In this document: positions 18,952 to 28,335 of the stretch, in pieces
How positions within the stretch are numbered: position 1 is the first letter of the stretch
Layout: the number at the start of each line of letters is the position of its first letter
Assembly (NCBI GenBank): GCA_900315875.1
Contig: ONAX01000011.1
Coordinates: forward strand, 1-33,139
Source of the DNA: an uncultured Eubacteriales bacterium
GTDB taxonomy: Bacteria; Bacillota; Clostridia; Oscillospirales; Acutalibacteraceae
DNA length: 33,139 nt
Direction: 5' to 3'
Translations under genes and position numbers: made by a program
The notes under the pieces: generated by a model
Seen by the model: the letters and a program-made list of their open reading frames with translations, nothing else
What the model was told of the DNA's origin: nothing
Databases searched by the model: none

Positions 18952-19200
18952 ATGAAGATGAAGTATAAGACCTCGCGCACCTGTTCAAGAGCAATTGAAC
19001 TGGAAGTCGAGGACGGAATTGTTAAAAGCGTCCGTTTCGACGGCGGCTGTATGGGAAACACAAACGGCATTGCATCTCTTGTTGAGGGCATGCCCGCGGA
19101 AGAGGTAATCAAGCGCCTTAAGGGTATTGACTGCAACGGCAGAGGCACCTCCTGCCCCGACCAGCTTGCAAAAGCACTGGAAAAAGCACTGCAGGAATAA
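18952..19200 (+). CDS. TSCPD-domain protein (TIGR03905-like)
   Basis: Small cytosolic protein of 82 aa. Seen are TCSRAIELEVEDGIVKSVRFDGGCMGNTNGI, LVEGMPAEEVIKRLKGIDC and GRGTSCPDQLAKAL. The four-cysteine layout and the TSCPD motif match the family that also forms the C-terminal domain of some ribonucleotide reductases and stands alone in many Clostridia; the cysteines may bind a metal or an Fe-S cluster. The start chosen (MKMKYK) is preceded by GAGAGG; a longer frame from 18934 would overlap the lipoprotein. Its function is not established. Confidence 0.85.
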   Translation: MKMKYKTSRTCSRAIELEVEDGIVKSVRFDGGCMGNTNGIASLVEGMPAEEVIKRLKGIDCNGRGTSCPDQLAKALEKALQE

Positions 19201-19237
19201 CTCTTCCCCGTTTTCCAAAAGTATAATCAAATAGTTC

Positions 19238-19275
19238 AAGCCGATGAATTATACGTTCATCGGCTTATTTATTTC
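19238..19275 (+). terminator. Terminator after TSCPD gene
   Basis: AAGCCGATGA (19238-19247) pairs perfectly with TCATCGGCTT (19257-19266), followed by ATTTATTT. Confidence 0.75.
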
Positions 19276-19280
19276 AAAGC

Positions 19281-20140
19281 AAAAAACAGCCCCGACGGGA
19301 AACCCGTCGGGGTAGTGGGATTCAAAGGAGTTAATTAATAGAAACTATCCGGATAAATCTAATGTCTTCCCATCGGAATCATTCCTTAAATTTAGTAAAA
19401 CCTGAGCGACACGGTAAAAACCGAAAGCTCTGAAAATCTGGTATTACATTGGATTCATTCCCATCTATAGGATTTATTTATAAGCAAAACATGCACTAAA
19501 CCATTCATCCTCGAAATGCATTGGGTGGCAGATGCATTACCAGACCACCATCGCCGTACCATCGCGGCTTAATGCTTGATTCTAATGACCGGGCCGTGCG
19601 CCCGCCCCCGGGAGCCTAACCGGTACATCAAACGCTCCGGGAACTTCCGACAGACAAACGGGGCAAAAAATCTGTTCAGCCTACAGCAGAATTCCCGATC
19701 CCACGGGCAACCCCCGCCTGCTGAGCGGTTGTGACACCGCAGTAGCCGCAACAAAAAGGACTCTCAGCCGGTGCCGATATTCAATTGTAAGTTCTCAGCC
19801 GAAGCTGCCAATGCTCCAATCAATCTCAAACCATAACGCAGGAGCATCCGGCACTTCTCACAGGTCAAAAACCTATCGGAGGAACCTACGCAAAAGATGC
19901 ATTTCACTGAAGCCGCCACATACGCCGGAGCCGCCGTCGAAACGGACGCCGCAGGGCTGACGCTCGAAAAAATCCGTCCTCACCTTGTCTTTTCCCTGTG
20001 GAAGACCTCGCACCAAGAGGCGCTAAGGTCAATTGAAAAAGCCGGTTCTGATTCGCCCATCGGAGCTTGCCTCCCTTCGTGGATTAGATAAAGCCGAAGC
20101 GGACTCTGCAGTCAAGAGATACTGCACTTCGTTTATCTTG
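19281..20140 (-). ncRNA. Candidate large structured ncRNA (about 860 nt), unidentified
   Basis: No credible ORF occurs on either strand in this stretch; the longest are about 60 codons without good ribosome sites. On the minus strand it starts just after an extended -10 promoter (20146-20173) and ends in an intrinsic terminator: CCCCGACGGG/CCCGTCGGGG at 19290-19312 followed by CTGTTTTTT. Internal helices are numerous. Examples are AATGCAT/ATGCATT around 19515-19538, a bulged CCCGGGAGC/GCTCCGGG near 19604-19641, ATGCTCC/GGAGCAT near 19811-19850, GCGGT/ACCGC near 19722-19740, and a 5' TGCAG/CTGCA hairpin near 20106-20125. A possible long-range closing pair joins 19357-19363 with 20083-20089. 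Size and layout resemble giant ornate RNAs (ROOL, GOLLD, OLE); I cannot assign it to any of them. It is not recognisable as RNase P RNA, tmRNA or SRP RNA. Confidence 0.65.
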
Positions 20141-20145
20141 ACTAT

Positions 20146-20173
20146 ATTATAGCACCTTTTTAGTAAAAGTCAA
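20146..20173 (-). promoter_or_regulatory. Strong extended -10 promoter driving the large ncRNA
   Basis: Minus strand: TTGACT (20173-20168), a 16-base spacer ending in TGC, TATAAT (20151-20146). No minus-strand gene follows for over 900 bases, so its product should be non-coding. Confidence 0.75.
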
Positions 20174-20229
20174 TAGTTTTTCTGAACTTTTAGGATAATT
20201 TTTATTTTTTATTTGTGTTGCATTTGCTC

Positions 20230-20258
20230 TTGACTTATTATCTAAAAAGTAATAAAAT
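20230..20258 (+). promoter_or_regulatory. Sigma-A promoter for DUF1292 gene
   Basis: TTGACT (20230-20235), 17-base spacer, TAAAAT (20253-20258), 50 bases before the ATG at 20309. It is divergent from the ncRNA promoter, 56 bases away. Confidence 0.7.
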
Positions 20259-20308
20259 GGTTATATAGTGCTGTTACTGCACTAATTTACTGAAAAGGAG
20301 ATGCTGAC

Positions 20309-20626
20309 ATGAGCATGGACGAAAAGGATATGATGAATGAGGAAGAATATAACGAAGCTGACCTCATTTCCCTTCTCGACGACGAAGGAAACGAATACGA
20401 ATTTGAAGTAATCGATGAGATCGACTATAAGGACGGACATTACTATGCGCTGATGCCGCTGTTTGACCTGCCGGATCAGGACATTGAGCAGGGCAGCACA
20501 TACATGATTTTTGAAGCTGTAGAGGACGAAAACGGCGATCCCCAGCTTGCAGAGATCGAGGATGACGACCTTCTCGACGAAATCGCAGAGATCTTTGAAG
20601 CAGGCTTCGCTGCTGAAGAGGAATAA
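20309..20626 (+). CDS. DUF1292 domain protein (YrzB-like)
   Basis: Very acidic cytosolic protein of 105 aa. The DUF1292 core is visible: ISLLDDEGNEYEFEVIDEIDYKDGHYYALMPL followed by YMIFEAVEDENGDPQLAEIEDDDLLDEIAEIF. The family is widespread in Firmicutes, in Bacillus encoded beside yrrK and yrzL, with unknown function. Here those neighbours are missing and it stands alone between two RNA transcription units. The start has AAGGAG eight bases upstream. Acidity and size are normal for the family. Confidence 0.88.
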   Translation: MSMDEKDMMNEEEYNEADLISLLDDEGNEYEFEVIDEIDYKDGHYYALMPLFDLPDQDIEQGSTYMIFEAVEDENGDPQLAEIEDDDLLDEIAEIFEAGFAAEEE

Positions 20627-20688: not shown

Positions 20689-20946
20689 AACAAACGAAGT
20701 CAAATTTGTTTATATTGTCTGCCCGATGCGTATTTTCGTCTCATATAACCCTACAACCTTTAAATCGGGAATCCGGCTCCGTCGGTGGACTTCAGACCTC
20801 CCGCTTCAAGCGGACGAAGGGAGTATGAAGCCGAAGGGAGGATACCCACCTGCTTATTCCGTAGGCAGGTTATTGATTGACGGGGTACGGTTGGGCGGAC
20901 TTTATTATGCCTTTGTGCGATACGGTTGTTGCCGTATCGTTTTTTT
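20689..20946 (+). ncRNA. Candidate small structured ncRNA (258 nt), family unassigned
   Basis: Bounded by the promoter at 20654-20682 and a terminator: CGATACGG (20918-20925) with CCGTATCG (20932-20939) and seven T. A closing helix pairs GTCTGCCC (about 20718-20725) with GGGCGGAC (about 20893-20900). Inside are CCCGAT/ATCGGG, CTCCGTC/GACGGGG (one G-U), GGTGG/CCACC, CCGCT/AGCGG and ACCTGC/GCAGGT helices. The short ORFs across it (for example 20654-20962) lack ribosome sites. The size and rod-like closing helix would suit 6S RNA or the Clostridia raiA-type RNA, but I cannot confirm either; the SRP GGAA-tetraloop domain is not seen. Confidence 0.65.
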
Positions 20947-28045: not shown

Positions 28046-28335
28046 TAACAAAAATACAGTCACATCATGTGCTATCCACCCTATCCGCCCGACCACACCC
28101 TTCGGTGCGACCGGGCTATATTATTACGCAGAAAAGGGACTGGAAGTTATTTCACAGTCCCCAATTCTAAAGAAAACCGCCCCGGTTTCCCGAAGAGGTC
28201 AAAGAATAGCTGTCCGGCAGGCGTCGCATCTCCTGCATCTCTCGGAGTTTCCTCCTGTCATACCATCGGCGTGTGGTCGCAACGAATTTTACCACCCCAA
28301 ACAGCTACTTCTATTCTATGTATATTATACCATAT
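28046..28335. other. Intergenic region with minus-strand terminator
   Basis: No gene seen. It holds CCCGACCACACCC-TTCG-type GC-rich dyads near 28087-28115 and a hairpin GGGACTG/CAGTCCC at 28136-28161. On the minus strand this hairpin is followed by four T, so it may end the unit coming from 28336. The hairpin resembles the one at 8862-8894. Confidence 0.5.
28131..28162 (-). terminator. Minus-strand terminator hairpin
   Basis: Minus strand: GGGACTG, loop with TGAAATAACTT, CAGTCCC, TTTT. It lies about 175 bases past the stop of the PBECR-like gene. Confidence 0.5.

What the first reader, a model, noticed from the sequence alone, without database searches (positions are those of the whole stretch)
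19281..20173. About 860-nt promoter-to-terminator unit with no ORF: a giant structured ncRNA
A near-consensus extended -10 promoter fires on the minus strand into a stretch with no usable ORF and stops at a strong intrinsic terminator. In between are many local helices and one possible 5'-3' long-range pair. Known bacterial RNAs of this size are few (OLE, GOLLD, ROOL), and none of their usual neighbours (oapA, prophage genes, tRNAs) is present. It may be a new family or an unrecognised member of one of these.
Basis: partly seen in the sequence, partly recalled or inferred. Interest (0 to 1): 0.88.

Follow-up and report, generated by a model that had tools for sequence, protein, structure and literature searches.

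The report
Giant RNA with start-stop ribosome sites
A large structured bacterial RNA that we could not match to any known family begins with a tiny gene whose ribosome-landing site looks folded shut, and carries further copies of that landing site that each start and stop translation almost at once; relatives occur in other genera of the same bacterial group.

Summary
The unit is real. An extended -10 promoter (20173-20146, minus) and an intrinsic terminator (19312-19281) bound an ~860-nt RNA. 58 promoter-anchored copies (own included) were extracted from 64 congeneric genomes, with cross-validated covariation. No Rfam family matches; RNase P and tmRNA lie elsewhere. The locus, divergent from DUF1292 with 6S RNA beyond, recurs in other genera and one other family.

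"No ORF" is wrong: a 26-codon sORF (20060-19980) has Shine-Dalgarno and start codon in 58 of 58 copies. Its ribosome site pairs with a segment in or just behind the sORF; own partner beats foreign in 21 of 23 RNAs.

The ribosome-site motif (GGNNUGANUCC-N-AUG) recurs downstream. Those copies meet an in-frame stop within 4 codons in 100 of 117 (genus) and 42 of 45 (other genera), against 18% and 24% of other AUGs in the same RNAs, and show no sequestration.

Best reading: a ribosome-engaging dual-function RNA, locked sORF plus open start-stop minigenes. Anatomy shown, function inferred. Against it: 34 of 79 motif cores in other genera lack the AUG, and the sORF's second half is frameshifted in 10 of 58. 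Not ROOL, GOLLD or OLE.

The parts
20146..20173 (-). promoter: -35 TTGACT (20173-20168), 16-nt spacer, TG-extended -10 TATAAT (20151-20146)
   Evidence: the -10 followed by CAAGAT or a near variant in 58 of 58 copies
19281..20140 (-). the giant RNA, about 860 nt, predicted start near 20140 (CAAGAT)
   Evidence: homologues; covariation; no transcript data
20058..20077 (-). 5' ribosome-binding module AAGGGAGGCAAGCTCCGATG of the short ORF
   Evidence: present in 58 of 58 copies
19980..20060 (-). short ORF, 26 codons plus stop: MGESEPAFSIDLSASWCEVFHREKTR
   Evidence: coding-like pattern in codons 2-8 by amino-acid score
20000..20021 (-). approximate anti-RBS segment inside the short ORF (GCCTCTTGGTGCGAGGTCTTCC) predicted to pair with the ribosome-binding module
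   Evidence: helices 1-3 (only 2 of their 12 pairs have changes on both sides within the genus); own-versus-foreign test across genera
19777..19794 (-). conserved element GAACTTACAATTGAATAT
   Evidence: ACAAYUKAAUA form in 45 of 58 congeners (reverse strand 1, shuffles 0.15), 3 of 3 of the second genus, 8 of 32 family regions with the motif against 2 of 55 without
19444..19463 (-). start-stop module 1: TGGGAATGAATCCA-ATG-TAA
19359..19387 (-). start-stop module 2: AAGGAATGATTCCG-ATG-GGA-AGA-CAT-TAG
19281..19312 (-). intrinsic terminator, 10-bp GC-rich stem and T-run
   Evidence: stem pairs covary in both clades
20309..20626 (+). DUF1292 gene, divergent neighbour
   Evidence: Pfam PF06949; found upstream in 44 of 58 congeneric loci; other genera
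20713..20905 (+). 6S RNA, beyond the DUF1292 gene
   Evidence: RF00013 58.6 bits; in 20 of 20 loci that I chose, mostly for having the motif

Best explanation
A dual-function, ribosome-engaging structured RNA. SHOWN by sequence: one promoter-to-terminator unit (about 0.8-1.1 kb in the window's genus); a short ORF of about 15-30 codons near the 5' end; the ORF's Shine-Dalgarno and start codon complementary to a segment in or just behind the ORF, with the two changing together across genera; 1-6 further copies of the same ribosome-binding motif downstream, without such a partner, nearly all followed by AUG and a stop within a few codons when AUG is present. INFERRED: ribosomes initiate on the exposed downstream modules and terminate at once (minigenes), so the 3' part captures or recycles ribosomes without making protein, while the locked 5' module is opened only in some condition (ribosome abundance, a factor or temperature) to make the micropeptide or refold the RNA. 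The physiological target is not identified.
For: 5' ORF in 58 of 58 copies. Mean BLOSUM score of changed codons 2-8 is +1.69 in frame against -2.06 and -2.52 in the other frames, 0 of 150 column permutations as high (40 sequences drawn from 61). Other genera: first copies with an ORF of 15 or more codons 33 of 44, against 143 of 366 other AUGs. RBS sequestration: downstream complement p<0.05 in 18 of 34 5' modules of other genera against 1 of 34 upstream; genus 16 of 58 against 0 of 55; 3' modules 0 of 55 and 5 of 115. Own partner better than foreign in 21 of 23 RNAs, p 7e-6 (the 23 include two of the window's genus and three of a second genus, so they are not fully independent). Start-stop: ORF of 4 codons or less in 100 of 117 later copies (genus) and 42 of 45 (other genera) against 168 of 953 and 88 of 366 control AUGs; all three stop codons are used. 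Motif strand bias 65 forward, 3 reverse, 1.75 in shuffles, over 91 regions upstream of DUF1292. In its UGAGUCC form it is nearly confined to this RNA: 17 of 19 matches in 40 genomes lie in it, reversed control 1 (the window's own copies have GAAUCC and GAUUCC and are not counted there).
Against: No transcript, ribosome-footprint or phenotype data. 34 of 79 copies of the motif core in other genera are not followed by AUG (AAG 15, AAA 11, others 8), and 12 of 15 AAG copies still have an in-frame stop within 4 codons, so part of the motif and of the 'stops' may be an RNA-level signal. In the genus the +1 frame also closes within 5 codons in 52 of 117 (frame 0: 102; +2: 19). The synonymous fraction of codons 2-8 is not above the column-permutation null (P 0.27), and the second half of the ORF shows no significant signal (BLOSUM P 0.06, synonymous P 0.67); 10 of 58 copies shift frame there. 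11 of 44 first copies in other genera open fewer than 15 codons. 3' copies do not coevolve with the 5' partner (13 of 23, p 0.23). In the window's own genus the sequestration signal is weak one sequence at a time (16 of 58) and few lock pairs show changes on both sides.
Confidence: 0.42

Rival explanations
1. The repeated GGNNUGANUCC-N-AWG motif is a binding site for an RNA-binding protein or another RNA, and the giant RNA is a multivalent sponge or scaffold. The stops after the AUGs are only a safeguard against unwanted translation.
For: Copies with AAG or AAA in place of AUG keep the motif, and AAG copies often keep a nearby stop; tandem arrays at about 50-nt spacing in some congeners; motif strongly strand-specific.
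Against: The 5' copy looks like a genuine initiation site of a conserved ORF and its sequence changes together with a pairing partner. The UGAGUCC form is rare elsewhere in 40 genomes, so no shared mRNA targets are evident, at least for this exact form.
Confidence: 0.25
2. It is the mRNA of a 15-30 residue micropeptide. The long structured 3' region and its ribosome-binding modules mainly protect the RNA from nucleases through bound ribosomes.
For: Coding-like amino-acid pattern; recurrent acidic start of the peptides such as MGELEP, MNSEEP, MYSEEP, MDSEQ. Ribosome binding at a strong SD of a mini-ORF is reported to stabilise an RNA (passages of PMC8708949).
Against: The peptide's second half is poorly supported and frameshifted in 10 of 58 copies. 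Extensive covariation lies far from the ORF.
Confidence: 0.2
3. A classical ornate RNA (catalyst or multimeric scaffold like OLE, ROOL or GOLLD); the ORF and start-stop modules are incidental.
For: Size, many covarying helices, near-invariant stretches.
Against: Start-stop and RBS-pairing statistics far from chance; no Rfam match.
Confidence: 0.1
4. A decayed gene or chance promoter-terminator pair without function.
For: None found beyond absence of a long ORF.
Against: 58 congeneric copies and, with the same neighbours, copies in other genera; covariation.
Confidence: 0.02

Closest known systems
RNAIII of Staphylococcus aureus (recalled, not read here)
   Same: Long structured regulatory RNA with a short 26-codon ORF near the 5' end.
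   Different: No Rfam match here; the ORF's ribosome site is complementary to the ORF itself or its edge, and the same site recurs as start-stop copies.
Minigenes (lambda bar, recalled; axe-txe mg2 ATGactTAA and LEE leaders, passages of PMC8708949)
   Same: Shine-Dalgarno, AUG, one or few codons, stop; two-codon forms such as ATG ACT TAG and ATG ACT TGA occur here too.
   Different: Those described in the passages sit in leaders of protein genes; here 1-6 copies of one shared module lie in a free-standing structured RNA.
OLE, ROOL and GOLLD RNAs (start of the abstract of PMC12286853 in a search listing)
   Same: Rare class of large structured bacterial RNAs.
   Different: No Rfam match; different neighbours; this RNA was not found in viral, phage or plasmid collections.
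CsrB/RsmZ-type sponge RNAs (recalled)
   Same: Many copies of a short motif resembling a ribosome-binding site.
   Different: Many copies outside the window's genus lack GGA; the UGAGUCC form is nearly absent from other genes.
6S RNA (RF00013)
   Same: Neighbouring gene, and itself a mimic: 6S copies a promoter (recalled), this RNA copies a ribosome-binding site.
   Different: Separate gene on the opposite strand, beyond DUF1292.

Membership tests
ROOL / GOLLD / OLE | match to the family's Rfam covariance model | tested here: not met
   no match at gathering score and none of the three among the 9 matches up to E=10 on 19180-20310; none in 32 further loci
ROOL / GOLLD / OLE | usual neighbours (prophage genes, tRNAs, oapA; recalled) | tested here: not met
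   no tRNA in window; none among ten neighbouring proteins scanned against Pfam; the RNA is absent from the viral contigs pattern scan and phages
RNase P RNA | covariance match | tested here: not met
   class A gene at G000 C10, no class B match, none on this stretch
tmRNA | covariance match | tested here: not met
   tmRNA at G000 C27, 148.5 bits; none on this stretch
dual-function RNA (RNAIII-like in working) | translated short ORF in a structured regulatory RNA | tested here: inconclusive
   amino-acid pattern of codons 2-8 and structure support it, synonymous fraction does not (P 0.27); translation and regulation not testable here
minigene | Shine-Dalgarno, AUG, stop within a few codons, beyond chance | tested here: met
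   100 of 117 and 42 of 45 against 18% and 24% of control AUGs
minigene | ribosome initiation, peptidyl-tRNA drop-off or reinitiation | not testable with these tools
   needs ribosome profiling or toeprinting
CsrA-type sponge | repeated GGA in hairpin loops (recalled) | tested here: not met
   many copies in other genera lack GGA (AAAGGGUGAGUCC); no consistent enclosing hairpin seen by eye in folds of the copies. In the window's genus the copies do contain GGA

The most novel reading that the evidence does not exclude
A ribosome-side counterpart of 6S RNA: encoded next to 6S RNA, this RNA presents an array of open ribosome-binding sites that start and stop translation at once, parking or recycling ribosomes, while a ribosome-sensing locked short ORF reports or adjusts the state. 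The pair would tune RNA polymerase and ribosome activity from one locus.
Probability: 0.13. Interest if true: 0.97.

Novelty: categorically new. Interest (0 to 1): 0.82.

Why it matters
Large structured bacterial RNAs are few and mostly unexplained. This one is chromosomal, mostly syntenic, and found in several genera; record titles suggest rumen and gut sources. Its anatomy (locked short ORF plus repeated start-stop modules) gives direct, testable predictions about ribosomes. One carrier, Pseudoruminococcus massiliensis, is a named strain in the collection (family Acutalibacteraceae). If the ribosome reading holds, it would be a new way for a cell to control translation with RNA alone.

Tried and rejected
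Rejected: RNase P, tmRNA; any Rfam family; CsrA sponge; phage or plasmid origin, as far as the collections reach. Tried and weak: an all-against-all covariation test with a tree-based null gave only 2 significant pairs; I report it beside the cross-validated test. The R1 model search of the family found 10 of 398 genomes, probably because the model is narrow; synteny and motif found more. The idea that the motif is complementary to the 16S 3' end including UCC could not be tested well: the chosen 16S end pattern was found in 1 of 60 genomes; UCC in the 5' module is explained by its pairing partner, UCC in the 3' copies is not. Local folds of motif copies showed no consistent enclosing hairpin (by eye). 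A 21-nt identity with the TSCPD gene was not followed up.

Rows dropped before counts: L002 and L064-L067 (partial matches, the G034 match among them) from the homologue set; 2 of 58 loci too short for the full alignment; L143, L144, L145 and L083 as duplicates, and L239 as near-copy of L238, (still contains the first four). Alignment A2 was given 42 of 56 sequences and was only looked at. Later modules are defined by order, not by ORF length. In one search the 5' and 3' modules of other genera were split by ORF length (10-35 codons). One search counts one congener with a 1-codon first copy because its pattern missed that 5' site; one search found it.

Full report
OBSERVATION. On the minus strand, TTGACT-16 nt-TATAAT with a TG before the -10 (20173-20146, 11 of 12 matches) faces a strong terminator (stem 19312-19290 and T-run). 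The transcript would run from about 20140 to 19281, 860 nt. Rfam finds only 6S (20713-20905, plus) and skipping-rope (28305-28209, minus) in the window. With relaxed thresholds the stretch gives 9 weak matches to unrelated families, all below gathering scores. RNase P class A and tmRNA are elsewhere in the genome.

CONSERVATION. Blastn with the unit gives a match in 59 of 64 genomes of the genus, own included; the five without are G005, G016, G018, G019 and G040, four of them 81% complete or less, G040 91%. One of the 59 (G034) had only a promoter-like fragment and was dropped. The other 58 have the -10 followed by CAAGAT or a near variant; 56 are long enough to align. Mean identity to the window copy is 56%, minimum 49%. 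A terminator-like hairpin starting 840-1110 from the first query base was found in 40 of 58; the simple finder gave nothing in 17.

STRUCTURE. RNAalifold on 56 sequences gives many helices with compensatory changes. Because that structure was derived from the same data, I split the tree into clades of 31 and 25, derived the structure from one and tested the other against column pairs matched for rate and gaps. 50 of 93 and 51 of 97 variable pairs reach p<0.05, about 5 expected each. A stricter all-pairs test with a tree-based null gave only 2 significant pairs, one in the terminator and one inside. For the 5' region, 96.9% of cells pair, against 93.2% in shuffles and 37-54% when partners are slid; 10 of 21 pairs have changes on both sides, 8 of them in two helices outside the lock.

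SHORT ORF. Contrary to the finding, all 58 copies have a purine-rich Shine-Dalgarno and ATG at RNA position 74-203, opening 23-31 codons (45 in three). In the window it is 20060-19980, MGESEPAFSIDLSASWCEVFHREKTR. In a sample of 40 of 61 sequences, changed codons in codons 2-8 are conservative in frame 0 (+1.69) and not in the other frames (-2.06, -2.52); none of 150 column permutations reached it. The synonymous fraction is higher in frame 0 (0.23) than in the other frames (0.05) but not above the permutation null (P 0.27). The second half gives P 0.06 and 0.67. Ten of 58 copies are shifted in frame there, although the nucleotides are kept.

WIDER RANGE. A model of the 5' region found 10 of 398 genomes of the family: six of the genus, three of one other genus, and one weak match in a third whose site reads much like the others. 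A pattern scan of named genomes gave 59 stretches: most are Ruminococcus- or Clostridia-type MAGs, one is Pseudoruminococcus massiliensis; three (Methylobacterium, Terriglobia, Salinivenus) look like chance by their taxonomy. Viral contigs, phages and plasmids gave nothing. DUF1292 was found upstream on the opposite strand in 44 of 58 congeneric loci and 3 of 3 of the second genus; of the 14 without, ten have over 1 kb of upstream sequence, so the link is common, not universal. Upstream of DUF1292 some other genera carry a promoter and the motif described next. 6S RNA was in 20 of 20 loci that I chose, mostly for having the motif. A tandem-motif pattern over the order matched 8 of 394 genomes in three families; the reversed control matched 2 genomes. 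All four loci of one other family carry 6S, and tblastn found DUF1292 in two of them; the locus of the third family (L236) and one of the own family (L235) showed neither.

THE REPEATED MODULE. The 5' ribosome site has relatives downstream: GGNNUGANUCC-N-AUG, 1-4 copies in 57 of 58 congeneric loci (L031 is cut off by its contig end) and 2 by the strict pattern in each of the 3 of the second genus. In 91 regions upstream of DUF1292 (four duplicate other rows) the core appears 65 times on the RNA strand and 3 times on the other, 1.75 expected from shuffles; 34 of 91 regions have at least one, so 57 have none by this pattern. Its UGAGUCC form is nearly confined to this RNA: of 19 matches in 40 genomes, 17 are in it, and the reversed control gave 1; the window's own copies have other letters there and are not counted.

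START-STOP. Copies after the first are followed by a stop within 4 codons in 100 of 117 (genus) and 42 of 45 (other genera), whereas other ATGs in the same RNAs do so in 168 of 953 and 88 of 366; Fisher p 2e-49 and 3e-20, not corrected for relatedness. In the genus the commonest form is ATG-TAA; elsewhere ATG-NNN-stop, with TAA, TAG and TGA all used and different codons. As a frame control, 102 of 117 genus copies close within 5 codons in frame 0, 52 in +1, 19 in +2. First copies instead open 15 or more codons in 33 of 44 other-genus RNAs, against 143 of 366 control ATGs. Against a purely translational reading: 34 of 79 motif cores in other genera have AAG, AAA or another triplet for ATG, and 12 of 15 AAG copies still have a stop within 4 codons.

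LOCKED 5' SITE. In the genus, the Shine-Dalgarno and start region is predicted to pair with conserved bases inside the ORF, which would explain why these bases stay when the frame shifts; only 2 of the 12 lock pairs show changes on both sides within the genus. In other genera, a downstream segment (AUG+12 to +100) pairs with the 5' module better than shuffles (p<0.05) in 18 of 34, an upstream one in 1 of 34; in the genus 16 of 58 against 0 of 55. The 3' copies show nothing (0 of 55; 5 of 115). The 5' module pairs better with its own partner than, on average, do those of the other RNAs in 21 of 23 (Wilcoxon p 7e-6; two of the 23 are from the window's genus, some others are related); the 3' copies do not (13 of 23, p 0.23). 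Two segments that change together across genera support the lock.

MECHANISM. Shown: the anatomy. Inferred: ribosomes use the open modules as minigenes and the locked one conditionally. For minigenes, a paper (passages seen, PMC8708949) states that toxicity depends on RBS strength, length and last codon, and that ribosome binding at a strong SD can stabilise an RNA. Both effects are possible here. Which one is used is not known.

LITERATURE. Ten searches and term look-ups in two ncRNA surveys (PMC11109978, one passage seen; PMC8040213, none of six terms present) did not show this RNA. One large survey (doi 10.1093/nar/gkx699) is not held, and no supplementary files were read, so an earlier listing under another name is possible.

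VERDICT. A real RNA family, outside every Rfam family tested, whose anatomy I know of in no described system. Interest 0.82.

Noticed in passing
window 28209-28305 (-): skipping-rope RNA, RF02924, 39.1 bits (gathering 36.7).
   Followed up: no
window 20713-20905 (+): 6S RNA lies beyond the DUF1292 gene; the block 6S, DUF1292, giant RNA recurs in other genera.
   Followed up: partly
window 19028-19048 (+) and 19929-19949 (-): 21-nt identical sequence in the TSCPD gene and in the giant RNA; it contains a small hairpin and may be chance.
   Followed up: no
L182 1268-1613 (-): In one other genus an RNase P class A gene lies on the opposite strand in the stretch upstream of DUF1292, just beyond the motif copies.
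   Followed up: no
L237, downstream of the RNA: Tandem repeats of about 70 nt (ATAACCCTGGGCTGTTACCGAAATC...) follow the terminator in the printed sequence.
   Followed up: no
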